The translations under genes were made by a program, and so were the position numbers. This document shows positions 18,974-31,067 of a stretch of DNA of 64,000 bases, piece by piece. This DNA is from Powellomyces hirtus (lineage: Eukaryota > Chytridiomycota > Chytridiomycetes > Spizellomycetales > Powellomycetaceae), in NCBI GenBank assembly GCA_025526995.1, contig JAHLKG010000007.1, forward strand, positions 310,001 to 374,000, read 5' to 3'. Under the pieces are notes generated by a model, which saw only the letters and a program-made list of their open reading frames with translations, was not told the origin of the DNA and searched no databases. Every line of letters starts with the position of its first letter. Position 1 is the first letter of the stretch.

Positions 18974-20058
18974 TTACTCATTCGGGAGCTCCGTCATGGA
19001 CGCTTTCGTCATTGGCGTGATGGTGCTGTCGTAGTGCTTGATGCACATGCTTTTGCGATGGTATTTGAATGCCGGGGCCGGTAAAGGCTTCGTAAGTGAG
19101 TCGGCGACCATTTCAGCGGTAGGTAAGTACTCCAGGTGGATCTCCTTGTCAATATGATTACGGATGAAGTGATGTCGAATGTCAATGTGCTTAGTACGGG
19201 CGTGATGCACGGGGTTCATCGCCAGCGAGATGCATGACTGGTTGTCTTCGTAGATCGTTGTGGGTCAAGCATTTTCATCAAGATATTCGGAGATTTGGAG
19301 TTCTTGCAGAAGTGAGCGAAGCCAGATTGTTTCTTGAGTGGCGAAGGAAAGTGCCATGTATTCAGCCTCGGTAGATGAGAGAGCAACGGTGGGTTGGCGC
19401 TTTGAAGCCCACGTGACGGGGCCCACATTTCCAATGTAGAAAAGATAGCCAGTGATCGACCGTCGGTCAAGGATGTTGTTTCCCCAATCAGCATCGCTGT
19501 AACCATGAAGGGTAACATTATTTCCGCCAATGCAGAGGCTGTATTTTGATGTTCCCCATAGGTAGCGAAGGACGCGCTTTGCAGCTTGCAGATGTTGGGG
19601 CGAAGGGTTGCTTGTGAAGCAAGAAAGCATACTGACTGCGACAGCGATGTCAGGACGCATGCATATCATCAGGTACATGAGAGAACCAACGATTTCGCGA
19701 TATTCTCCTTCTTGCGGGTTAGGTGAAGTCTTTGTATTTTCGACTTCGTAGGGTTCGAGACTGGTCTGGTCCATCGGAGTGTTGACGGGCTTGCAATCTT
19801 GCATACCAAAGCGCTCGAGGATGTCATTTACATATGACTCTTGATCGAGATAGATGACGTGCCTTGAGTAATCGCGTCGAACTCTCATTCCTAGGTAGTG
19901 GTTGACTTCGCCTAGGTCTGTCATGTTGAACTCATTGTGTAGGGATGTCTTGATTGACGAGATTTCCGATTCGGTCTTTGCGAAAATGAGGAGATCGTTG
20001 ACGTAGACAGAGATGTACTGCGATGAGTCACTTTCAGGTAGAGTTCTGATGTAGACGG
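18974..20058 (-). pseudogene. Copia element D, pol 3' part (RT C-terminus and RNase H), 5' truncated
   Basis: Minus-strand frame with reverse transcriptase/RNase H signatures: VYIRTLPES, YVNDLLIFAK (catalytic YVDD changed to YVND), LGEVNHYLGMRV, CKPVNTPMD, IVGSLMYLM, RPDIAVAVSML, KRVLRYLWGT, SDADWG, SSTEAEYMALS, then after an in-frame stop near 19265 TKHIDIRHHFIRNHI and EYLPTAEMVADSLTKPL in a shifted frame ending 18974. The 5' part of pol and all of gag are missing; sequence identity breaks off at 20058, exactly where the 25-bp inverted repeat begins. Dead: truncated, frame-broken, active site altered. Confidence 0.85.
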
Positions 20059-20112
20059 CTGTCACAGGCCACTTAGGAATGCCATGTGGCATTCCTAAGT
20101 GGCCTGTGACAG
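20059..20112. repeat. Perfect 25-bp inverted repeat with 4-nt spacer
   Basis: Left arm 20059-20083 (CTGTCACAGGCC..) and right arm 20088-20112 are exact reverse complements around ATGT. It lies exactly at the junction between the truncated copia and non-copia sequence, so it marks a breakpoint, a transposon end or a fold-back join. Confidence 0.9.
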
Positions 20113-20293
20113 GGGATTTGGCATGGCTTTTACCGGTAATTCGGAACTTACCGGAAATCCGGTTTAGGCCCAAAGTCAGGACTTCCCATGGCTTTAAAGG
20201 GAATTGGAACCGAATTGGAACCAAATTGAGACTGATTACGTCACGCTTACGTAAGCTACCTCTAACGCGTCTGTGGAATCCGTGCCAAAAAAA

Positions 20294-20328: not shown

Positions 20329-21032
20329 CCCAGTGTCCAATGTATCACTAGTTGTATTCTTCTACTTTGGTGTAGAAACGCGCATTGTTTAAGCGTTGTT
20401 CCAATTGATCCATCTTTTCCATGTTTTCCAAGTGTCCTAGTGTCCATAGGTCCCCCATGCGTACTTAGCCTTGCCCGCGTCCAATCTCCCCCCGTTTTCC
20501 ACCTTCTATTGGAGTCCGTTTCTTCCTATCGATAGCAAGCCCCCTCAGCTTCCCACCCCACCCGATTCTCAACCCGCTAAATCCAAACACTCAGTTTTCA
20601 AAATCGCCTCTCTCCATCTTTTTCATTTTCCAACTGTTGCCCCTCCATACCCTCTAGCCACATCTCTTCTTTATACTATATTTTTTTCTCTCGAAAAAAT
20701 TCTGAGTAGTTGAGTGCCTGGGAAACCATAGATCCGTTCTAGCATCAGTAAAAAAATATGTTCCTTTTCCAAAAGTCCTACGGAATTATTCTATATGACC
20801 CCTTTTTGCTCCTCTCAAACTCCCAGATCTAGCTGGGATATTCTCCCCACACGGTCCTTTATGTTCGCTGGTTTTTTCGTCTTCTATCTATCGATAGGTC
20901 CGCCTCTTGCCACACAGCCTCAAACAGGGGCTTGCCCCCGTATCCTTTCGTTTTCGCGCAAAAAGATAGCTTCCCCACATTCCTATAAATCTGGGACTCC
21001 CTTTATCTTCACGCATCCAAGTTATTCCTAGC
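20329..21032. other. Left flank of viral-like island, no gene
   Basis: About 700 bp, pyrimidine-rich on the + strand, with no gene. TATCGATAG-type palindromes occur near 20527 and 20888 and again inside the fibre gene near 28547. A TATAAA box near 20984 precedes the first island ORF. Confidence 0.4.
20984..20989 (+). promoter_or_regulatory. TATA box before the 142-residue ORF
   Basis: TATAAA 44 bp upstream of the ATG at 21033, in an otherwise C/T-rich leader. Position suits a core promoter; no other evidence. Confidence 0.4.
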
Positions 21033-21461
21033 ATGGCACGTCAGCGTAAAAAATCGAAAGTTGCCACAAGTCGTCGCCGTCCAACTTTTAGGTCTGAAGA
21101 TCCTGCAGACAAAGCTCACTATCATCTCAATGGAATAAAATACAACATTGTGGATCGGCTGTTCAATAAAAAGAGCGGGACATTCTACCTGGGTCCGGAG
21201 AGGCAGAAGCTTAACTACGTCCTTGGAAAGATTGAGTACCATACTAAGGAACTCAAGCAGCTGTGTGAGCAAGATGTCTCTGTATCCCCTGTTACGCCTA
21301 GTGATATTTGCTCATGCAACTCATGCAAAGGTGGTCTAATTGGTCTTGTTGACAAATTACTCGATCTATTGCACGATGTATCGGCATTAACGGAGGACGA
21401 ATTACAGATTAAGCTATGGAACGTGCAACATTATGTTGTTGCAAATTGGTGGTTGGACTAG
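21033..21461 (+). CDS. Hypothetical viral-island protein, basic, Cys-cluster (142 aa)
   Basis: Not recognised. Intron-free ORF with a strongly basic N-terminus (MARQRKKSKV..SRRRP) that could be a nuclear signal or nucleic-acid-binding arm, a central IKYNIVDRLFNKKSGTFYLG and LNYVLGKIEYHTKELKQL helix, a CSCNSCKGG cysteine cluster that might bind metal, and a helical C-terminus ending NWWLD. Stop is TAG. Next to it, tail to tail 14 bp away, lies the 93-residue minus-strand ORF. Composition and compact packing match the other island ORFs, not the spliced host genes. Function unknown; a core or DNA-binding virion protein is only a guess. Confidence 0.6.
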   Translation: MARQRKKSKVATSRRRPTFRSEDPADKAHYHLNGIKYNIVDRLFNKKSGTFYLGPERQKLNYVLGKIEYHTKELKQLCEQDVSVSPVTPSDICSCNSCKGGLIGLVDKLLDLLHDVSALTEDELQIKLWNVQHYVVANWWLD

Positions 21462-21475
21462 ACCTCGACACTTCT

Positions 21476-21757
21476 TCATTCTTTCTTGTCCGTCTGGTCG
21501 CCAAAAACAACAACGGGCTCTTCTTTCGTTGCTGCCTTCTTCTGGGCTGCCTTCCGTTTCCTTAAAGGCTTTGGTTTGGATTCGCGCAAGAGTTCCTCCA
21601 CGCGGTTTTCTGCCAAGTCTTTGTAAAATGCGTCTAGGATTTCCCTACAAACGTTCTCAGGGACATTGGAAAACACTGGATCGTCTTCAAACGTTTTAAT
21701 AATAGCGTCCACGGATTCCTTGTCTTTAAATGTAGATGTCTCTCTGTTAAAATACAT
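21476..21757 (-). CDS. Hypothetical viral-island protein with Lys-rich tail (93 aa)
   Basis: Not recognised. ATG at 21757, TGA at 21476. The N-terminal two thirds is predicted helical and acidic (FKDKESVDAIIKTFEDDPVF, VCREILDAFYKDLAENRVEE); the C-terminus is a Lys/Arg/Ala-rich tail (KPKPLRKRKAAQKKAATKEE) then an acidic end. A TATAAACAAGA box sits a few bases upstream of the ATG, shared with the 113-residue ORF. The bipartite acidic/basic layout could suit a small nucleic-acid-associated or scaffold protein, but there is no family match I can name. Confidence 0.55.
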   Translation of the reverse strand: MYFNRETSTFKDKESVDAIIKTFEDDPVFSNVPENVCREILDAFYKDLAENRVEELLRESKPKPLRKRKAAQKKAATKEEPVVVFGDQTDKKE

Positions 21758-21760
21758 GTT

Positions 21761-21772
21761 GTCTTGTTTATA
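21761..21772 (-). promoter_or_regulatory. Short-leader promoter motif TATAAACAAGAC
   Basis: Read on the minus strand, it lies 3 bp before the ATG at 21757. It matches TATATAACAAGA at 22352-22363, which lies 13 bp before another island ORF. AT-rich boxes this close to the start codon are typical of late promoters of cytoplasmic or virophage-type DNA viruses; that comparison is inference. Confidence 0.5.
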
Positions 21773-21786
21773 ACCATTTAAAAAGT

Positions 21787-22074
21787 TTATTCACGCGGTT
21801 GTACGCAAGCTGTCCTGTTGCCGTTGCCATGTGTTAGCTTTGATGTTGTGAGAGAACATGTTGCTCTGACTTGCCTTTTTGTAAATTGTTCTGCGTTGTT
21901 TTGGACGCATTTCAAGAGCTCAATGGCGCGTGTGAGGTCCAGCTCCATTTCCTGGAGCTGGTCGAACATGGGTAAATCTTCCGCATAGTAGTCGGCTGTT
22001 GTAATTTCGACTTCTACAAGCACGTCCGTAACAAGGGATATAATGGTTTTCAAGTGCTCTACAGATACTGTCAT
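21787..22074 (-). CDS. Hypothetical viral-island helical protein (95 aa)
   Basis: Not recognised. Start chosen at ATG 22074, preceded by an A-rich leader (ACAAAAAACAAAC); an upstream extension of the frame has no ATG. The product is almost wholly predicted helix: VSVEHLKTIISLVTDVLVEV, FDQLQEMELDLTRAIELLKCV, then a polar tail ending QPRE. TAA stop. It is co-directional with the 93-residue ORF 30 bp downstream, so the two may be expressed together. Coiled-coil or scaffold roles are possible but unsupported. Confidence 0.5.
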   Translation of the reverse strand: MTVSVEHLKTIISLVTDVLVEVEITTADYYAEDLPMFDQLQEMELDLTRAIELLKCVQNNAEQFTKRQVRATCSLTTSKLTHGNGNRTACVQPRE

Positions 22075-22172
22075 GTTTGTTTTTTGTAACGTAACAAGTT
22101 CCAAGAACGCGTTCGATTTCTAAGCTTGGCTGTCATTAGTAAGATAAACGCGTTTTCCAACAAGAGTGTCAA

Positions 22173-22358
22173 ATGAATGATTCCGTTGGCAAACAAGATG
22201 CCAAGAACTCTTATGGTTCTAGAAAGATAAGATACCCAATCAAAATCTTCCCAGTAAAAACACCCAACAGTTTAAACAAATTGGTGGTCAGTCCTTTTCG
22301 TCGCAGGGAAGGCAGTTTTGCGTCTGTGCCCAGGACGTATAAGCTTCAATATATATAA
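22173..22358 (+). CDS. Possible small basic island protein (61 aa)
   Basis: ATG at 22173, TAA at 22358. It is divergent from the 95-residue ORF with about 100 bp between starts. Lys/Arg-rich throughout (GSRKIRYPIKIFPVKTP, VSPFRRREGS). Its stop overlaps the TATATAA promoter motif of the next ORF, typical of tight viral packing, but it is short enough to be chance. Confidence 0.35.
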   Translation: MNDSVGKQDAKNSYGSRKIRYPIKIFPVKTPNSLNKLVVSPFRRREGSFASVPRTYKLQYI

Positions 22359-22363
22359 CAAGA
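22352..22363 (+). promoter_or_regulatory. Short-leader promoter motif TATATAACAAGA
   Basis: 13 bp before the ATG at 22377, followed by an A/C leader (AAACAAAACAACA). Same box as at 21761-21772 on the other strand. Confidence 0.5.
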
Positions 22364-22376
22364 AAACAAAACAACA

Positions 22377-22718
22377 ATGGACGCTCCTGCAAACGCGTTT
22401 AAGATTCCCTGCTGCAACGAGGCTGAGTTTTTAAATTTGGCAATACAATTTCGTGACCTGAGTGATGTCATGGTAATCGTCGAACGAACAGTAGCCAACA
22501 GAGGCTTATTTCAAAAGTTGCTGAACATGACATCCTTCAAGAACAACCATAAGGAGAAGATGCTTTGGAAAAATCACAAAAAGTCATATGTAGCATTCCT
22601 TGATTTTCCTCCAGACAATGGTGGCGCGCACAAATTACTCATCTTTGGCTTATACCAATGCAAGCAAAGTAAGATCATGGGGTACCTTGAAATTGGTTAC
22701 ATTGACGAGGAGTATTAA
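22377..22718 (+). CDS. Hypothetical viral-island protein (113 aa)
   Basis: Not recognised. Intron-free, ATG 22377, TAA 22716-22718. It has an N-terminal FKIPCCNEAEFLNLAIQF, a helical VMVIVERTVANRGLFQKLL, a basic centre (FKNNHKEKMLWKNHKK) and alternating strand-like C-terminal segments (YVAFLDFPP, KLLIFGLYQC, MGYLEIGYID). Its stop shares the palindromic TTAA with the stop of the large minus-strand fibre frame, so the two genes overlap tail to tail by 4 bp. Mixed alpha/beta fold likely; no function proposed. Confidence 0.55.
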   Translation: MDAPANAFKIPCCNEAEFLNLAIQFRDLSDVMVIVERTVANRGLFQKLLNMTSFKNNHKEKMLWKNHKKSYVAFLDFPPDNGGAHKLLIFGLYQCKQSKIMGYLEIGYIDEEY

Positions 22719-23521
22719 GAGGCGGCTATCAACTGACCGGACAATCTGGAAATAGAATTCCAATCCAAACCAGCGGTGTAGCAAGCAATTGTAGGGTTGA
22801 ATTTTAACGAAATTATATCATTCGCGTTCAGCAACAAATGAAATGAGCCTTGCACGGTTGAGTATTGGTTAGGGAACTGTGCATTAATGGTTGCTTGAGT
22901 GCTGATACGGACTGGAGGGAGCTCTCCATTAATGTCAATGCAGAACATAATGTTATTGTTTCCTGTAAAGTTGGTCAATCCAATCGAAACGTGGAATTGC
23001 CAAAGACCTGTTTTTGGAATGACGTAGTCAGAAGTTCCATTGCGCCATCCAGACTGAGCCCCTTTATTGTATCTAGTTGTTGTTGTCATTGTAACTTTGG
23101 TTACAGCGTTGGCTGGTAGATTTTGATAAGAGGTTATTTGCATATTATCGACAATGAAAAACGTGGGTGCTTTTGAATCCACGGATCCATTAACCGTCAG
23201 ATTACCTACTCCATCCAATCGAGCAATTTGAGTTGTTCCTCCGTACCATTTGAAACCTAAAGTTGCATTTGTATTAGGAACCGAATTCCAAACATGATTC
23301 CCTTCCATTCCAATCGCATAATCTACTGCGGTTCCAGACACTTCTGGGAAGAGGACGATTTTGGTTCCAGTGGACCGTGTTGAAAATGTTGGCGCTTGAA
23401 CTCCAGTAGTAGAGTAATGAATCAAGTTTGACGCCCCGTTTGTAAGATTCAACAGTACTCCTCTAAGCATCATCTTTCCAGTCATATCGATGTTTGCCAC
23501 ATCGGTTTCGCTTTGACCAGC
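22715..23521 (-). CDS. Fibre protein, part 3: C1q/TNF-like trimeric head
   Basis: 268-residue C-terminal portion of the giant fibre frame, in the same reading frame as part 2 and separated from it by one TAG (23524-23522). It starts AGQSETDVANIDMTGK; the first ATG is a few codons in. After a fibre-like region (KAPTFFIVDN at about 100) the last 155 residues have the pattern of a C1q/TNF-like jelly roll: WRNGTSDYVIPKTGLWQFHV, NNIMFCIDING, STVQGSFHLLLNANDIISLK, and terminal SRLSGQLIAAS. Such heads trimerise and bind receptors. In viruses and phages of many kinds receptor-binding heads sit at fibre tips. Head assignment is by pattern only. Stop TAA overlaps the neighbouring gene's stop. Confidence 0.6.
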   Translation of the reverse strand, partial: AGQSETDVANIDMTGKMMLRGVLLNLTNGASNLIHYSTTGVQAPTFSTRSTGTKIVLFPEVSGTAVDYAIGMEGNHVWNSVPNTNATLGFKWYGGTTQIARLDGVGNLTVNGSVDSKAPTFFIVDNMQITSYQNLPANAVTKVTMTTTTRYNKGAQSGWRNGTSDYVIPKTGLWQFHVSIGLTNFTGNNNIMFCIDINGELPPVRISTQATINAQFPNQYSTVQGSFHLLLNANDIISLKFNPTIACYTAGLDWNSISRLSGQLIAAS

Positions 23522-26500
23522 CTATCGAGTAAAGAAGATAAACGGTGTTCCGCCGGCTCCCAAACCCCTACCGTCGATACGGAGGGCAGCCGCTCCACTT
23601 GTCGTAATAGGTGTGTGGCGGAAATTAACCCCGAGGTTGAGGAGTGGTGTAGAACCCCCTACTTCAGTCGTTATACCACAAGGTACTGTTGCCGTCCCAA
23701 TGTTGATGGATTTCTGAACGCTTAGGCCTCCAGCTATCTGGAGAGCGCCGGTGGTAGAAGAGGTGGATTCGGAAAGTGTTCCTAAGATAACATTGTTGGT
23801 ATCGGCCTGAATCCGGAAACCTAGACCGGCCCCATTTCGGCCTTGGAGTAAGAGGTCACCAATGTCGTTTCGTATAGTCGTATTGTTAACGCCACCATCT
23901 GCGGTTCTGGTTGAACTACTGATAAATATGTTTAGGTTACCAATATCGTTTCCTATAACCAGATTGTTGTAGGCGGCATTTCCGTTACTTAGATTTTTGA
24001 ACACACTGGTCCTACCTCCATTGAAAGATCCTTGTGAAGCAAGGGTTCCGGTCATACCAACAACTCCACCAACCTGTAGAGATCCTGTAGCGCCAACACC
24101 TCCAGCAATCTGAAGCGCACCGCTTGATGCCGAAACGGAATCCTCAGTGGAGGTAATCTTTACTGCAGAGTGATCGAGGGCCAGGGGGAACCCGGCGGTC
24201 GTTGTTGTGAGACTAAAGGAAAAGTTACAAAAGGTAAAAGGTGTTCTTGTTTTGAGACATACAAGCCTTATGTACTTAAAGGAACCTGCTGTAAAGTTTA
24301 GCGTATGACTCGGAACGTCTGGGATATTATCTTGGTCGACAGCCACCGTCATGGTCCCGGTTGATTGTCCAACTAAAACCGCGATTCTCAGAGGCATTGA
24401 TGGAGAAGGTTCGCCTAGCCTTTGATAAATTGTTACTGAAGAGATCGTTCGAGGAGCGGGCAGTTCGACTGCTATCCACTCTCCAGGAACAAAGGTCGTA
24501 TTATTGTTAATCCAGGAGACTGTAGAAGTAGTATATACACCAGTCGTCGAGTTGTAAGTATTGGCTCCTGACACCCATGGAGCAGTTAGCCGCTCGGATT
24601 TAAAACCCTTGAAAGCCTCGTAACCCGCCGAGTGGAAACTTGATGCATTCACGTTATAGGTTCCGTTTAGGTACTCCCAAGAGGTTGTGGTAGAGTTGGC
24701 CGCTGTGAGAGCAGCTCCACCCACTGGAGGCAATGTTACAGGAACCGTATCCGACCCTTTTATCTTCCTCCAGACTGTAATCTCTTCGGATGTACTGCCT
24801 CCGGTTTCTAGAGACGTGACTCGACCGGTGAGATTCGTGACATTAGTGTTGGTAGAACTTAAGGATGTTATGGAGGCAAATGATCCGTCAACATAGGTTT
24901 TGTTAACAAGATGGTTACCCAGAGTAGGCGCAGTGGCTACTGTAAGGTTTCCACTGTTGACAACCATACCTCCGTCAAATATATCTACCACTGATGCATT
25001 TGTATTGGTCCCCAGACGAATCACTTTCGAGTTTGACACTCTGATGATGGCATCGCCAGTTTGCGCATTTGAAAACCATTGTGTATTTGACCCACAACGT
25101 CCAAAGGATACGTTATCTGCTAGAGACAGCGCTACACTTCCAGTGTTGGTTATGTTGATGTAACCATTGACCGATAATGCTGTAAGAGTCCCAACGGAAG
25201 TTATCTGCGTTTGGGCCGGATTTACAGATATCGTTGCTCCAGTTTTGGTAAGACCAGTCCCTGCAGTGATTGTATCCTGCTTAGAGGTGGAGAGGGCATC
25301 AACAGATGCTTTTGTTGCTATGATTGCGGCATTGTACCCTAGAACGCTGTTGGCCAAAGTAATCCCTGCAGTGACTGAGAGCAAATTTTGCTTCCCGGTT
25401 TGGAGCGATGTTATTGAGGTCTCCGCGGTGCCAATACAAGTAGTCAAGGCATCTGTGCTTGCTTTAGTAGAGATGACACTGGTATCGAATGCAAGCACAC
25501 TATTCACCAAAGTCAAGCCTGATGAAACACTTAATGTATTCTGCTTACCAGTAAGCGTACTTTCTGCACTTGTAACTCGTGTTGTAAGCGATGTCAGATT
25601 GGTGTTTGTGGTTCCCAAGTTTGTAACAGTTGCATACATAGCGTCGGTGAATGTTTTGTTCACAAGATGAGCTCCAATTGTAGGAGCTGCCTCGGCAGTT
25701 ATTGTCTTTGAAAAGGTTGCATTGGATCCTGTTAAACCATTTCCAATAAACAGAGGTTTGTTAATCGTTACGGAATCCAATGGAGTGAATAGGTCCACGC
25801 GGACTCCGCAGTAATTGTAGTTTCCACCATTGGTGAGACATACCAGCCTAATGTAAGAGTATGCTGCAGTGTTCGTCGAGGTAAACCATTTCGGATCACA
25901 GTTGGAATTGCTCCATCCAACTGGTGTTGCTTGATGATACAACAGATTCCAAGTTGATCCATCGTTCGAACCTAATATGGCGAATGTCTGGGGCATCCCA
26001 AGGATGTTGCCTCCATCCCTATAGCGCAGCCTTGTAGCAGAGATACTTTTCGCTGTTGGGAGCTGGATCTGTATCCATTTGCCCTTGTATGAAACTCCCG
26101 CTGCTGTGGTTTCAGTGTTACGACTTGATACACCTGCAGCGGTGTAAACATTAGTGATCCACAAACTCGAACCCCAGTTAGCAAACGCCTTGTGAGACCT
26201 GTTAACGTTATCACTGTGTGAACAGGATATAACATACGTACCATTCCCCCAAGCCTCCCCGGACACGGTGGTTGTCGAGGGCTCACTATCTGTAAAGAAG
26301 ACCGTGGAGGGAACCCATCGCTGCATACCAAACACGATGTCTCCTATGGCAGAGATTGTCTCTGATTGGTACGGGTTAATTGAGATAATGTTGCTATTTT
26401 TGAGGAGTCCTTTTCCAACGGTTATGGGGCTGTTACTTTCCAAAATCGACTCTTTGGCTTCCACAGCATCCAGAGCGATTTCTGCCCCATAAAGTCGCCC

Positions 26501-27232
26501 GCCGTGGTTGGCGACTGATGACTCAGCCATAAGCAGACGCGTGTCCAAAGGCTCGACAACGTTGGATACTGTTTCGATCGTCCAAGGCCTCGATATCTTT
26601 TCTTCGAACTCCCAAGTCTTTTCCAAGTTCATTCCATAGCACCACCTGCCAACCCTTACGTCCTCTGGCCATGAGTCGAACATCAATGTTGTACGTCTGG
26701 TGTCTTTGTCCGAGTGGATCACAACATTGGATCCTTCAGACCAGATGTAGTTTCCATCATCATCAAGTTCGTAGATTGGATTTCCATTCTTGTCAACTTG
26801 ATCAGTACCGTCTGCATTCTTCTTCTTCTTGCGTTCCCGTTGGTACCCGAATATTACTGCAAACCCACCGAGGAAACCAAGGAGAGAAGGGAGGACTCCG
26901 ATAATTGGAAAGATTGGCACCAGGGGTGGTATGGGTGGAATTGGGGGGATTGGAATGAGTGGAATTGGAAAAATCAGACTTGTAGGACTTGTCGTCTGTA
27001 CGACTTCATTGTTTTCATTCTTCAGTGTATCGTCTTCATTGTCCGTCTTCTTTTCATCATCGTCGTCGTCATTTTGTTTCAAATTTTGGCTCGAGATCGT
27101 CCAGCCCATTGCAGGTGATCCAAAAACACTTATACCTGTCCCAGCACGAATCTGTGTTGTATTGGAAATCGTCTTGCCTGCAATTGAAATCCCTGCCCCC
27201 CCCGAGTAAGGAGTCTCCTCTGGGATGTTCAC
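23522..27232 (-). CDS. Fibre protein, part 2: membrane-like Pro/Ile segment, two discoidin-like modules, fibre repeats
   Basis: 1236 codons bounded by in-frame TAG codons (27235-27233 and 23524-23522) and open throughout. It begins without an ATG (VNIPEETPYSGGAGISIAG). Residues about 40-70 are acidic/Asn-rich. About 80-128 is a hydrophobic Pro-Ile run (PIPLIPIPPIPPIPPLVPIF, then LLGFLGGFAVIFGY) ending in RERKKKK, which could be a membrane or lipid-associating segment. Residues about 309-480 and 847-1010 resemble F5/8C (discoidin, galactose-binding-like) modules: KWIQIQLPTAKSISATRLRY, FAILGSNDGSTWNLL, YSYIRLVCLTN; and WIAVELPAPRTISSVTIYQR, FKYIRLVCL. Between and after are fibre repeats (HLVNKTFTD, ITSVGTLTALSVNG, ALQIAGGVGATGSLQVGG) of a kind common in tail fibres of phages and of large DNA viruses. 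A carbohydrate-binding adhesion function is inferred. Confidence 0.65.
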   Translation of the reverse strand: MNIPEETPYSGGAGISIAGKTISNTTQIRAGTGISVFGSPAMGWTISSQNLKQNDDDDDEKKTDNEDDTLKNENNEVVQTTSPTSLIFPIPLIPIPPIPPIPPLVPIFPIIGVLPSLLGFLGGFAVIFGYQRERKKKKNADGTDQVDKNGNPIYELDDDGNYIWSEGSNVVIHSDKDTRRTTLMFDSWPEDVRVGRWCYGMNLEKTWEFEEKISRPWTIETVSNVVEPLDTRLLMAESSVANHGGRLYGAEIALDAVEAKESILESNSPITVGKGLLKNSNIISINPYQSETISAIGDIVFGMQRWVPSTVFFTDSEPSTTTVSGEAWGNGTYVISCSHSDNVNRSHKAFANWGSSLWITNVYTAAGVSSRNTETTAAGVSYKGKWIQIQLPTAKSISATRLRYRDGGNILGMPQTFAILGSNDGSTWNLLYHQATPVGWSNSNCDPKWFTSTNTAAYSYIRLVCLTNGGNYNYCGVRVDLFTPLDSVTINKPLFIGNGLTGSNATFSKTITAEAAPTIGAHLVNKTFTDAMYATVTNLGTTNTNLTSLTTRVTSAESTLTGKQNTLSVSSGLTLVNSVLAFDTSVISTKASTDALTTCIGTAETSITSLQTGKQNLLSVTAGITLANSVLGYNAAIIATKASVDALSTSKQDTITAGTGLTKTGATISVNPAQTQITSVGTLTALSVNGYINITNTGSVALSLADNVSFGRCGSNTQWFSNAQTGDAIIRVSNSKVIRLGTNTNASVVDIFDGGMVVNSGNLTVATAPTLGNHLVNKTYVDGSFASITSLSSTNTNVTNLTGRVTSLETGGSTSEEITVWRKIKGSDTVPVTLPPVGGAALTAANSTTTSWEYLNGTYNVNASSFHSAGYEAFKGFKSERLTAPWVSGANTYNSTTGVYTTSTVSWINNNTTFVPGEWIAVELPAPRTISSVTIYQRLGEPSPSMPLRIAVLVGQSTGTMTVAVDQDNIPDVPSHTLNFTAGSFKYIRLVCLKTRTPFTFCNFSFSLTTTTAGFPLALDHSAVKITSTEDSVSASSGALQIAGGVGATGSLQVGGVVGMTGTLASQGSFNGGRTSVFKNLSNGNAAYNNLVIGNDIGNLNIFISSSTRTADGGVNNTTIRNDIGDLLLQGRNGAGLGFRIQADTNNVILGTLSESTSSTTGALQIAGGLSVQKSINIGTATVPCGITTEVGGSTPLLNLGVNFRHTPITTSGAAALRIDGRGLGAGGTPFIFFTR

Positions 27233-28813
27233 CTAAATCGTGTTATTTGAGATTGTAACATTTTGGCCAGCTGTGTACGGTTTCAATGTTGTAGACACAG
27301 TGTTCCCTGACACTTGGATGTGTTCGCTCCCCTGCAGATCGAGTGCGACACTGTTACCTGTTCTCTTTAACCCATTTTCAAAGGTCATGTTTTCCTTTAT
27401 TGTGTTAAGTCCTACCTTCTCTAACGCCCCCTCGACATTGAGCGCCAGGACCACATCGTTGTTGGTTCCCTCTCGAAGGCGTACTCCATTAGCAGATTGG
27501 AAAATGTAGCCACCGCTAATCTTGCCGTTTCCATCGATCTTTACAGATGACCCGTTTACCAAAGGTGACACGTTTACACCTAGATTATTGTTAGCATCAA
27601 CTTGCAATGTGGCATCCGTGCGAACATTAAGAAGACGTTTATTATTGGTTTCTGGTGCTACATCAATAGCTGAGCCAGACTGTATGTATTGAGCTACATA
27701 CGACTGCGTTACAGCCTCGTTGGAATTAGGATTGAAATTTTGGTTCAGTTCTACATGCGGCACAGACAGCTCAGAAAGCGTGTCATTGTATTCAAATCGA
27801 CTTGATACGTTAAAGCCGTCAAAGACTCCATAGAACGGTATCTTATGGTTCCCTTTGGACTTGATAGCCAAGGCCTTGCCTCCAAACGTTGCAAGGGTGT
27901 TCTTCTGGGTAAAGTCATCACTTGTACGAAGCCGCAACAAAGTGATATCTGTGTCTGGAACTTCATCGGTAAGATCCGCTAAAGCATCGTAACCCAATTC
28001 TGTCAATTCATCCATTCCCATGTCAAAGATTCCACCGTTGTGCAAGGCACCCAAGGGCTTGAGCACATCCTCAGTATTACTGACAAGTTCTCCTTCCTCT
28101 ACTTTGAGACCTCGACCGTACTTGAAAGTAATTGACCCGTCCTCCCCCCGAGCGATTGGCTCCGTCAGAGTTTCCGGTACAACCGAAAGTTTCCCTTCAG
28201 TGTCAACAACAAGAGACTCGTCATAATTGAGTGTTAACTTACTGTCAGAATCTATGAATAAAGGATCAGAGTAATCTAGGCCTAACATACCATGTTGGAC
28301 CTTTAGTGACTCATCAAGCACTAGTTTCACACCGTTGGCGTCTCTGGCCAAAGGAGCCTGTAGTGTCTCCCTTACAACCGAGAGATCCCCATTGTTAATT
28401 TCCAACGAGTTGTCATAAAACATAGAGAGACCTTCTTCTGTAATACCAAAGGGGGCTGCTAGAGCAAGCTCCACTGTTTTGGAGTCTGTGTCGTGACTTA
28501 GTGGAAAGTCGTATTCGTCTGGTTTGAAGTCTAATGCACCCTCAGCTATCGATAGGTACTTGTCGTTTATCTCTAATCTAACAGTGGCAATACCGTCTTC
28601 TGTTGAGATTGTAATCGGATCTGTTGATGTTACATCATTAATCAAAAGTTCACCATTTTTGTTTTCCACGGTATCTGCAGCGATTTTTTGGAATCCAGTA
28701 ATCTTGCTATTGGCAGTGAATGCCTTCATGTTGCCCGAGACAACAGGACTGATCAGGTTGGTATCTTCTAGATTTCGCAAGCCGGACGATGTTCCACTGT
28801 TCAATCCGGACAT
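27233..28813 (-). CDS. Fibre protein, part 1: N-terminal tail and triple-beta-spiral-like shaft
   Basis: ATG at 28813 (MSGLNSGTSSGLRNLEDTNL); the frame also extends upstream without an ATG. 526 codons to the first TAG. From residue about 60 there are tandem units of roughly 15-20 residues with alternating hydrophobics and a turn (DESLKVQHGMLGLDYSDPLF, DESLVVDTEGKLSVVPETL, RGLKVEEGELVS), the pattern of shaft repeats in trimeric fibres of adenovirus/reovirus type. Later repeats (NKRLLNVRTDATLQVDANNN, GKISGGYIFQSANGVRLREG) are more phage-like. The last residues before TAG (GQNVTISNNTI) lead smoothly into the next frame, so the TAG is inside a repeat unit, not at a domain end. An AT-rich box (AAATATATCTC) lies about 30 bp upstream of the ATG. 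Confidence 0.65.
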   Translation of the reverse strand: MSGLNSGTSSGLRNLEDTNLISPVVSGNMKAFTANSKITGFQKIAADTVENKNGELLINDVTSTDPITISTEDGIATVRLEINDKYLSIAEGALDFKPDEYDFPLSHDTDSKTVELALAAPFGITEEGLSMFYDNSLEINNGDLSVVRETLQAPLARDANGVKLVLDESLKVQHGMLGLDYSDPLFIDSDSKLTLNYDESLVVDTEGKLSVVPETLTEPIARGEDGSITFKYGRGLKVEEGELVSNTEDVLKPLGALHNGGIFDMGMDELTELGYDALADLTDEVPDTDITLLRLRTSDDFTQKNTLATFGGKALAIKSKGNHKIPFYGVFDGFNVSSRFEYNDTLSELSVPHVELNQNFNPNSNEAVTQSYVAQYIQSGSAIDVAPETNNKRLLNVRTDATLQVDANNNLGVNVSPLVNGSSVKIDGNGKISGGYIFQSANGVRLREGTNNDVVLALNVEGALEKVGLNTIKENMTFENGLKRTGNSVALDLQGSEHIQVSGNTVSTTLKPYTAGQNVTISNNTI

Positions 28814-28905
28814 GTCTATAGTTACTAAGTAACAAGAGATATATTTCAGCTCATAGGAGCTTGTAAGCTTAGGTACACATGCTTGGACGCGTCGCGCCAC
28901 GGTAC

Positions 28906-28922
28906 GGTATGCTTTGCATACC
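28906..28922. repeat. Hairpin GGTATGC-TTT-GCATACC
   Basis: Perfect 7-bp stem with a TTT loop, immediately upstream (in minus orientation) of the fibre gene and 6 bp from a second hairpin with the same TTT loop. Could be a bidirectional terminator or an element-end signal. Confidence 0.7.
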
Positions 28923-28928
28923 GAGTGA

Positions 28929-28943
28929 GCAGGCTTTGCCTGC
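28929..28943. repeat. Hairpin GCAGGC-TTT-GCCTGC
   Basis: Perfect 6-bp stem with a TTT loop, 9 bp from the stop codon of the esterase-like gene. Same architecture as the hairpin at 28906-28922, unrelated stem. Confidence 0.7.
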
Positions 28944-28951
28944 TTACGCGT

Positions 28952-30592
28952 TTAAATTACTCTCTGACGTTTGGTGGGTCTTCTCTGGTCGGAGGCATTC
29001 AGGGCCATGTTCCAGTCGGGGCCCCATGAATTGAGACCTTTCCATAGGAACGTGTACACGTATGCTTCGTCGAGAGCCGGCTCATCGTTACCACCGGCAA
29101 CAGTTAGCACGTTGTCTGGGCGGTCTGGCTGCAGACCGTCGATGTCCAAATGCCAATCGGTGCACTGGCAGGCTGGCGAATTTTCTTCATACCAGTCCTT
29201 ACACCATCTTCCGCCAGAGGCAAACGCTTTCACTCCACGTCGGATGTTCGAGTCGCCAAACATGTGGATGAAAGGGTGCCGCGGAGCGATGCACCGGTCT
29301 TTCCACACCGCGTAGGTTCGCGCATGATAGCGGCAGGAGTAAGGGACCCACACGCGGTCCGAATAAGACTTGAGAAGGAGCGGCATCTCATCTGTAATTT
29401 CTTCCCCATCGCGTGGGACATGCATGCGCAATGATGGAGTGGGATCCAAATGCGCGGCCGGCACCCAGCGGCCGCGGTGGTTGCCATTTCCGCACGGCGG
29501 GAGGGCGCTGTATGACTGATGTGTTAGTTGCGGATGCGTTTCAGGCGCTGTCGTCAGGCGTAATTGAGGCAGATGCTGGAGAGAGTGTCGGTTGATAAGG
29601 ATCGGAAGGCTGCTCGGCGCCCAAAAAACATGCTCTGACACTTCATAGTTCCAAAGGTAGTCCGTATCTGTATCGAACAAGTTGGGGTTAGCGAGCGGGC
29701 AAACCCAGATTCTTTGCCAACGGGCTTGGCACATGCACATACATTCCAGAACAGCATCAATCTCATAAGAGTCTGGGTCTTTTAGATCCAGCGTGATATT
29801 GTACAGGCGGTAGGCGACTTCGCTTGGCCGGCCACGAATGACCAGAAAGTCGCGGTCGGCGTGAATGGGCAGAGTGTAGTTCTCTCCAGTAGCACGGATC
29901 TCGACGCTGTCCGGCGGCCAATTGGAGATGGGAGGCGGGAAATCTCGTTCAGCGATGGGGTCGGGATTGTGGTAAGGCGTAGCAGCTACCCCATCCCCCC
30001 AATCGACAATGACCAGCCACGCGCAGAGTGGCCGCTCTGACGACAGAACTATCTGCGTGTCGGCGCCATTGGCGCTGCTGACAATGTCATGGTGGTTTAA
30101 TGAGGGGATGATGATGGCGCCCTTTCCGTCGTGATCAGTTATAGAAGCAAGATCCGCTGCTGTTGGCAGATGGCCTTCGTCGCCACATAGCGAAGTCGGC
30201 TGGTCGGGATGCGGAAGAGACCATGAGCGTTCTCTCAGCGTTGTTGGGTAAATCTTCTTTCGACCTGCACGCGTCGGACGTCTTATCGGCTGGACGCCAT
30301 CTGTTGCTTCTCTCCAGTCTGATGCAGTAACTGGATGGTCGTTAGCGACTTGCTGCGCAGCGTTTTCAGGAGGGAGCTCTGGCATGGAAGACCACTCATC
30401 CTCCGAAGTCGAATGCGCTTCACCATCAGCCGACCAAAAATGCTTGCTCACGACCTGTGTCAATGCATTTGGGTTGTAGGACAAGGTAAGAAGCAAACAG
30501 AGTTGGGTCGTAAGGGCTAATGCAATCCACGTCAAGCGTCCGTATAGCTTCCGTGTAGGGGGAGCGTGGGCTCCGAGCGCAGAAAGAGCCAT
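28952..30592 (-). CDS. Membrane-anchored GDSN PC-esterase-like protein, probably C-terminally truncated
   Basis: Start at ATG 30592 (MALSALGAHAPPTRKLYGR); 546 residues, TAA at 28952. Residues about 20-38 (LTWIALALTTQLCLLLTLSY) form a type II signal anchor, so the rest is likely in the Golgi lumen. A beta-rich middle contains Trp/Cys motifs (CAWLVIVDWGDGV, CMCMCQARWQRIWVC). The catalytic block is IHMFGDSNIRRGVKAF near residue 445; the GDS serine motif followed by NIRR resembles PC-esterase/NXPE-type polysaccharide O-acyl enzymes. Only about 100 residues follow, with no convincing C-terminal DxxH, which normally lies much further on. The stop is reached 9 bp before the island hairpins, so the island may have cut the gene. 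Family assignment moderate. Confidence 0.6.
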   Translation of the reverse strand: MALSALGAHAPPTRKLYGRLTWIALALTTQLCLLLTLSYNPNALTQVVSKHFWSADGEAHSTSEDEWSSMPELPPENAAQQVANDHPVTASDWREATDGVQPIRRPTRAGRKKIYPTTLRERSWSLPHPDQPTSLCGDEGHLPTAADLASITDHDGKGAIIIPSLNHHDIVSSANGADTQIVLSSERPLCAWLVIVDWGDGVAATPYHNPDPIAERDFPPPISNWPPDSVEIRATGENYTLPIHADRDFLVIRGRPSEVAYRLYNITLDLKDPDSYEIDAVLECMCMCQARWQRIWVCPLANPNLFDTDTDYLWNYEVSEHVFWAPSSLPILINRHSLQHLPQLRLTTAPETHPQLTHQSYSALPPCGNGNHRGRWVPAAHLDPTPSLRMHVPRDGEEITDEMPLLLKSYSDRVWVPYSCRYHARTYAVWKDRCIAPRHPFIHMFGDSNIRRGVKAFASGGRWCKDWYEENSPACQCTDWHLDIDGLQPDRPDNVLTVAGGNDEPALDEAYVYTFLWKGLNSWGPDWNMALNASDQRRPTKRQRVI

Positions 30593-31067
30593 TGCCTTGT
30601 TCTTGCCGAAACGGAATATGCGAGCGGAGGGAAAGATGTGGCAAACTCGGCGGAAAGTGGGCTTCTCTATATGGCTGAATATCACGGCAATGGTAAGTGT
30701 GCGAGATTCGACCTTGTTGGCCGGGGCCTGACGCGTCGGAGGGGACGCGTGGAAAACGTGATGAATGCTGATTAGACATTACTCTAAAAGTAGGATAACA
30801 GCGAGGGGATCAAATCAATCAGCATTCCCGCGCGCTTTGACACTCTGGCTTTCGTGGTGAGGCGCTCCCCTCCTTGTGCCCGACGTACAAACGTACAAAA
30901 CAGCCTTGCCTTCCCGCTCATTCCGGGCAGTGCCTTCCCGCATTTCCACGCCTGAAAGTACAGGAAGTTCATGAGAGCGCTGTCCATTCGCTTCTCTGTC
31001 AAGCTGTTCTTGCACTCTTGAAACTCTTTGTTTGCAAACCTATCAATATACTGAAAGAGTCTGGCAA
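30593..31067. other. Divergent intergenic region between esterase-like gene and USE1
   Basis: 475 bp between two divergent start codons, so probably a bidirectional promoter. No gene and no clear TATA box recognised. Confidence 0.45.

What the first reader, a model, noticed from the sequence alone, without database searches (positions are those of the whole stretch)
22715..28813. Two-thousand-codon fibre frame interrupted only by two in-frame TAG codons
Seen: ORFs 28813-27233, 27232-23522 and 23521-22715 are in one and the same minus-strand frame, with no frameshift over 6.1 kb; the only breaks are TAG at 27235-27233 and TAG at 23524-23522. Parts 2 and 3 lack an ATG at their start. Both TAGs are followed by G and both are one transition from CAG. 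The first falls inside a repeat unit. Either two independent nonsense mutations hit an otherwise preserved frame, or UAG is read through to make nested fibres of three lengths (shaft; shaft plus discoidin; full fibre with head). Host genes here (KDSR, USE1) and the 142-aa island ORF end in TAG, so genome-wide reassignment is not supported.
Basis: partly seen in the sequence, partly recalled or inferred. Interest (0 to 1): 0.9.

Follow-up and report, generated by a model that had tools for sequence, protein, structure and literature searches.

The report
Decayed virus fibre gene in fungus
The window holds a cut-off leftover of a virus integrated in a flagellated fungus, whose long attachment-fibre gene carries two stray stop codons that its sister copies in the same genome lack, so it is an ordinary broken copy; the sister copies suggest that these viruses trade the outer ends of their fibres.

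Summary
In detail: one minus-strand frame runs 28813-22715 with TAG at 27235-27233 and 23524-23522 and a terminal TAA. Readthrough is not supported. The same genome (29.3 Mb, 60 contigs) holds nine copies of this fibre gene; six of nine are single open frames, and no other copy has a stop at either site where it can be aligned. TAG is an ordinary terminator here: 11 of 48 ORFs that I took as viral end in TAG, four uninterrupted fibres among them. RNA 3' of both TAGs folds no better than shuffles. The fuller relatives are polinton-like viruses, about 24 kb in the two measured, in a zoosporic fungus. The window holds only an 8.5-kb remnant, 20477 to about 28982. Best reading: a recently decayed, truncated copy. 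The more interesting by-product is fibre mosaicism: copies C3 and C26, with a saturated shaft, share a nearly identical distal fibre (130 of 169 fourfold sites differ before codon 759, 33 of 757 after). PLVs in chytrids and PLV fibres with these domains are already published.

The parts
20477..28982 (-). truncated remnant of an integrated polinton-like virus (about 8.5 kb; two measured relatives are about 24 kb)
   Evidence: blastn to the element at G000:C30; of 11 viral proteins searched, the fibre not among them, only one small ORF matches the window
20477..20990 (.). inner part of one terminal inverted repeat; no match to its outer 217 bases
   Evidence: 93% identity to positions 218-732 of the 732-bp TIR at C30:114664-115395 / 138693-139424
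21479..21910 (-). homologue of the 143-aa ORF that lies beside the fibre in C30a
   Evidence: tblastn 94% over 145 columns; not in the list of ORFs of at least 130 aa, integrity not checked
22715..28813 (-). fibre gene, 2033 codons including its stops, interrupted by two TAG
27233..27235 (-). first in-frame TAG
   Evidence: sense in 8 of 8 other copies: in 7 exactly one codon lies between the matches to parts 1 and 2, in the eighth (C50) the codon after the part-1 match lies inside its 546-codon ORF
23522..23524 (-). second in-frame TAG
   Evidence: open frame across the site in 7 of 8 other copies, the eighth (C30a) not alignable here
28217..28357 (-). avian adenovirus fibre N-terminal domain PF06536
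   Evidence: 36.8 bits against a cut-off of 22.7; coordinates
25808..26119 (-). F5/F8 type C (discoidin-type) domain
   Evidence: 57.5 bits against 28.2; coordinates
24263..24496 (-). second F5/F8 type C-like domain (PF22633)
   Evidence: 46.5 bits against 27.8; coordinates
22718..23521 (-). C-terminal module, 268 aa, called head here by position; no Pfam family
   Evidence: structure prediction not usable
28952..28982 (-). last codons of the neighbouring viral 548-aa gene, now the tail of ORF 28952-30685
   Evidence: pairwise alignment to L016

Best explanation
A polinton-like virus integrated into the genome of a zoosporic fungus. In this copy most of the virus was lost, leaving part of one terminal repeat, a small ORF and the fibre gene. 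Freed of selection, the fibre then picked up two independent nonsense mutations (both TAG). If transcribed, translation should stop at the first TAG and give at most the 526-aa shaft base. Shown: frame, stops, truncation, nine copies, open frames at these sites in the others, past purifying selection, TAG as a normal terminator. Inferred: that the mutations followed the truncation, and that no useful protein is made.
For: Nine fibre copies in the genome, six of nine in one open frame of 2063-2230 codons, stop to stop; the three broken ones are broken differently: window two TAG, C8 one TAA, C50 a one-base indel. Site 1 is sense in 8 of 8 other copies and site 2 open in 7 of 8, the eighth not alignable. 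Stop usage in 48 ORFs that I took as viral, homologues of different elements counted apart: 27 TAA, 11 TAG, 10 TGA; four uninterrupted fibres end in TAG. Between the window pieces and five or six relatives per part, dN/dS is 0.06-0.24 at dS 0.11-1.16, so the gene was constrained until recently. In part 1, polarised against four relatives, the window branch has 7 nonsynonymous and 8 synonymous changes, the C30a branch 15 and 11 (20 sites ambiguous). About 3.6% of single changes would create a stop here, so two stops fit roughly 50 unselected changes in 6.1 kb. Capsid, ATPase, integrase and replicase proteins of the relatives have no match in the window.
Against: No frameshift in 6.1 kb, whereas unselected decay usually brings indels too; with only two lesions this is weak. 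No reads or expression data were available. The low nonsynonymous count on the window branch of part 1 could also be read as continued constraint on the shaft.
Confidence: 0.86

Rival explanations
1. UAG readthrough (or a suppressor tRNA) makes nested fibres of three lengths.
For: Long frame intact on both sides of both TAGs; parts 2 and 3 have no ATG at their start.
Against: No other copy has a stop at either site where alignable; TAG ends 11 of 48 ORFs taken as viral including four uninterrupted fibres; folding z-scores 3' of the TAGs are +1.02 and -0.26 (pseudoknots not modelled); no tRNA gene in the window. A genome-wide search for a suppressor tRNA was not done.
Confidence: 0.03
2. One or both TAGs are sequencing or assembly errors and the copy is really open.
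For: PMC10120064 (passages) reports that many stop codons in protist endogenous PLVs were assembly artefacts and that reads of near-identical copies can be mixed.
Against: Both lesions are substitutions, with no frameshift in 6.1 kb; the nearest copy in part 1 (C30a) is 96% identical there, 80% in the middle and 30% in the head at protein level, so read mixing is unlikely at least at the second site; the copy is truncated anyway.
Confidence: 0.08
3. The truncated 526-aa shaft was kept by the host for a use of its own and the rest is untranslated.
For: Part 1 has an ATG and an open frame, and few nonsynonymous changes on the window branch (7 against 8 synonymous).
Against: Those changes can equally date from time spent as a virus; no expression evidence was available.
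Confidence: 0.03

Closest known systems
Polinton-like viruses integrated in zoosporic fungi (Spizellomyces punctatus, Allomyces macrogynus; PMC7805220, passages seen)
   Same: Fungal host with zoospores; integrated element with capsid, ATPase and helicase-type genes; that paper reports terminal inverted repeats and 5-7 bp target duplications in some of its fungal and oomycete elements, 5 bp here in two.
   Different: No sequence comparison with those elements was possible; a chitinase, reported in 52% of the S. punctatus group, was not seen in the 23 ORFs of the flanking loci scanned with Pfam.
PLV fibres with avian adenovirus fibre, discoidin and other adhesion domains (PMC12220804, abstract and passages seen)
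   Same: Large modular fibre; PF06536 and F5/F8 C domains are both reported in PLV proteins there.
   Different: The passages seen place discoidin mainly in Rhizaria and glaucophyte PLVs and PF06536 with laminin, collagen or Peptidase_S74; here PF06536 and two discoidin-type domains are in one frame, and no Peptidase_S74 match was found in the three pieces.
Stop-bearing endogenous PLVs in protists (PMC10120064, abstract and passages seen)
   Same: Integrated PLVs with premature stops.
   Different: Fungi were excluded from that assembly survey; here sister copies in the same assembly are open.

Membership tests
Polinton-like virus (the fuller relatives, e.g. C30a, C3, C25) | double jelly-roll major capsid protein | tested here: inconclusive
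   A 416-aa protein is in 7 elements; Pfam Capsid_N is weak (E 0.022, below cut-off). Foldseek points to this fold (best PDB hit PBCV-1 capsid protein E 1.3e-6; mavirus capsid E 1.9e-4 in BFVD), but the model has mean pLDDT 50 and TM-scores are about 0.3 or less
Polinton-like virus (the fuller relatives, e.g. C30a, C3, C25) | A32-type packaging ATPase | tested here: met
   PF04665 27.9 bits against cut-off 22.8 in C30a
Polinton-like virus (the fuller relatives, e.g. C30a, C3, C25) | integrase (rve or tyrosine recombinase) | tested here: met
   rve 41.4 bits against 32.6, plus chromodomain, in C30a; homologues in five other elements
Polinton-like virus (the fuller relatives, e.g. C30a, C3, C25) | primase-polymerase / D5-type helicase replicase | tested here: met
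   Prim-Pol 82.5 bits and DUF5906 in C30a; D5_N in C3 and C8
Polinton-like virus (the fuller relatives, e.g. C30a, C3, C25) | terminal inverted repeats and target-site duplication, 14-40 kb | tested here: met
   C3 24.1 kb and C25 24.6 kb with TIRs of about 1.4 kb and 5-bp duplications, read by eye; C30a has a 732-bp TIR at 99.5% but no clean duplication. Ends of the other copies were not worked out
Polinton-like virus (the window copy itself) | capsid, ATPase, integrase, replicase in the element | tested here: not met
   of 11 viral proteins searched against the window only the 143-aa ORF matched; the window copy is a remnant, not a virus
Polinton/Maverick proper | protein-primed DNA polymerase B | tested here: inconclusive
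   not seen among 23 ORFs of the flanking loci scanned with Pfam; not all ORFs were scanned
Programmed stop-codon readthrough gene | in-frame stop conserved among relatives | tested here: not met
Programmed stop-codon readthrough gene | stimulatory RNA structure 3' of the stop | tested here: not met
   z +1.02 and -0.26; pseudoknots not modelled
Adenovirus-type fibre | fibre N-terminal/shaft domain | tested here: met
   PF06536 36.8 bits against 22.7
Adenovirus-type fibre | trimeric knob-like head | tested here: inconclusive
   head model pLDDT 39; no PDB sequence match

The most novel reading that the evidence does not exclude
Polinton-like viruses living in one zoosporic fungus exchange the distal part of their fibre (discoidin domains and head) even between lineages whose other genes are hardly related, so the host genome works as a store of fibre tips. 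C3 and C26 have a saturated shaft and, in the stretches held, no matching capsid or integrase, yet a distal fibre that differs at 33 of 757 fourfold sites; the high-identity match ends about 10 bases past the fibre stop on the C3 side, with one further 123-bp stretch at 86% downstream.
Probability: 0.55. Interest if true: 0.5.

Novelty: new member of a known kind. Interest (0 to 1): 0.3.

Why it matters
The two-TAG frame itself removes a tempting but wrong case for UAG readthrough. The copies around it matter more: they add a fungal host with several gene-rich PLVs and show, within one genome, where recombination cuts a viral attachment protein. That makes it testable whether PLVs in chytrids reach new host strains by trading fibre tips, as tailed phages do (the phage comparison is recalled).

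Tried and rejected
Conserved readthrough: rejected on the sister copies. Genome-wide or virus-wide UAG reassignment: not supported, on terminator usage. RIP-like hypermutation as the cause of the stops: dinucleotide indices of the window copy (0.81, 1.09) lie within those of the six other copies computed (0.61-0.89 and 1.02-1.22); polarised window-branch changes in part 1 are 12 transitions to 3 transversions, too few to conclude. Structured RNA: no Rfam match in the window and no stable fold 3' of the TAGs. PHROGs: part 2 has a weak match to a phage tail protein (E 3.9e-6), part 3 an insignificant one. PDB by sequence: parts 1 and 3 no match, part 2 not tried. Relatives in IMG/VR: four scans with alignments of capsid, fibre part 1, head and ATPase found none; fibre middle, integrase and replicase were not tried. 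Head structure: model unusable, no fold search made with it. Host as animal-related protist: Runt and integrin searches empty, but their controls were silent too, so uninformative. Algal host: no light-harvesting family, with a control that rang. The database of homologous proteins could not be queried, so relatives outside this genome are unknown. Papers: PMC12220804 abstract and passages, PMC10120064 abstract with the start of the introduction and passages, PMC7805220 passages; all others only as search listings with abstract beginnings.

Full report
What is there. Part 1 carries the avian adenovirus fibre N-terminal domain, part 2 two discoidin-type domains, part 3 no known family.

Relatives. 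The window lies in G000:C7 of a 29.26-Mb, 60-contig genome. Searching it with the three pieces apart gave nine copies of the gene: the window, two on C30 (C30a at 130.9-137.0 kb, C30b at 101.3-107.7 kb), and one each on C3, C8, C13, C25, C26 and C50, besides three short weak matches on C3, C4 and C16. Six of nine (C30a, C30b, C3, C13, C25, C26) are one open frame of 2063-2230 codons, stop to stop. C8 has one TAA; C50 has a one-base indel.

The two sites. At the first TAG, the matches to parts 1 and 2 leave exactly one codon between them, in open frame, in 7 of 8 other copies; in the eighth (C50) the codon after the part-1 match lies within an open ORF of 546 codons, the frame breaking a little further on. 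So the site is sense in 8 of 8. At the second, four of eight leave exactly one codon (C25, C13, C50, C8), three (C3, C26, C30b) are open with a small length difference at the junction, and C30a cannot be aligned because its head differs. Intact copies therefore exist and the TAGs are private to this copy. TAG is used as a terminator by 11 of 48 ORFs that I took as viral in the flanking loci (homologues in different elements counted apart), including the uninterrupted fibres of C30a, C3, C25 and C13. The 120 nt 3' of each TAG fold no better than shuffled sequence.

Selection. dN/dS between the window pieces and their relatives is 0.06-0.24 with dS 0.11-1.16. Compared were C30a, C3, C25, C13, C8 for part 1; C25, C13, C3, C30a, C26 for part 2; C25, C13, C50, C8, C30b, C3 for part 3; the other copies were left out, mostly for poor alignment or near-identity with one used. 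Between uninterrupted copies the ratio is 0.04-0.29, one pair being saturated. The copies thus diverged as functioning genes, and the lesions are recent by comparison. About 3.6% of single changes in this sequence make a stop.

The element. The fuller relatives look like polinton-like viruses: 24.1 kb (C3: 285069-309186) and 24.6 kb (C25: 28544-53149) with TIRs of about 1.4 kb beginning TGTCGCAGGCC and 5-bp target duplications ACCGT and ACGGA, pieced and read by eye; C30a has a 732-bp TIR without a clean duplication. Taken over the elements they encode a probable capsid protein (low-confidence model), an A32 ATPase, an rve-chromodomain integrase, Prim-Pol and D5-type replicase genes and, in C13, C50 and C30a, a cytosine methylase. 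The host has chitin synthase and the flagellar transport protein IFT46 and no light-harvesting family: a zoosporic fungus; the species is unknown to me. The window holds only 20477 to about 28982 of such an element: part of one TIR, a homologue of a 143-aa ORF, the fibre and the last codons of the next gene, which now end another ORF.

Mosaic fibres. At protein level the window and C30a agree at 96% in the shaft, 80% in the middle and 30% in the head, while C30b agrees with the window at 60% in the shaft and 81% in the head. C3 and C26 are 57% alike in the shaft, 94% in the middle and 100% in the head; fourfold-degenerate sites differ at 130 of 169 before codon 759 of C3 and at 33 of 757 after it, chi-square 502 against at most 17 in 1000 shuffles (the first part of C26 was outside the stretch used). 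In the 30 kb held around the C26 fibre the ATPase is only 28% identical and no capsid or integrase match was found (tblastn at 1e-10; a neighbouring 468-aa ORF does not match the capsid profile; no Pfam family); the rest of that element was not fetched. C50 and C13, otherwise nearly identical, differ by a patch of about 400 bp that is closest to C8 and C3. So fibre segments move between elements by recombination or gene conversion. Trees agree in part: the shaft and middle trees join the window to C30a with full support, the head tree joins it to C30b without full support (91/95) and has no fully supported fork; C26 stands apart in the shaft tree and joins C3 in the other two. C50 was in no tree and C8 not in the middle tree.

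Known and new. PLVs in zoosporic fungi (PMC7805220) and PLV fibres with PF06536 and with discoidin domains (PMC12220804) are in print, so the element is a new member of a known kind. I saw no report of distal fibre exchange between PLV lineages in the listings, but those searches were narrow and no claim of priority is made.

Noticed in passing
L019:8880-9560, L023:6811-7491, L025:9275-9955: Three elements (C3, C8, C25) carry, near the 3' end of the fibre, a 227-aa protein with a response-regulator receiver domain, at least 99% identical among them.
   Followed up: partly
window 28906-28922 and 28929-28943: Two perfect small hairpins with TTT loops lie between the fibre and the neighbouring gene in the window copy; C30a lacks this stretch (read by eye).
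   Followed up: no
window about 26815-26980: Part 2 of the fibre contains a proline-rich, strongly hydrophobic stretch followed by a basic cluster, unusual inside a fibre (by eye).
   Followed up: no
L029 and L031/L032: Elements on C13 and the 24-kb contig C50 are nearly identical, with one patch of about 400 bp of another lineage and a one-base indel in the fibre; possibly an alternative haplotype.
   Followed up: partly
window 28952-30685: A 577-codon ORF without Pfam match, and unlike the viral proteins searched, ends in viral codons: the virus remnant may have cut a host gene.
   Followed up: partly
L030:4800-6944: A 715-aa protein with a C5 cytosine methylase domain in C13, with homologues in C50 and C30a.
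   Followed up: no
window 36741-57414 and 19265-20224: Several Ty3/gypsy and Copia retrotransposon genes surround the viral remnant.
   Followed up: no
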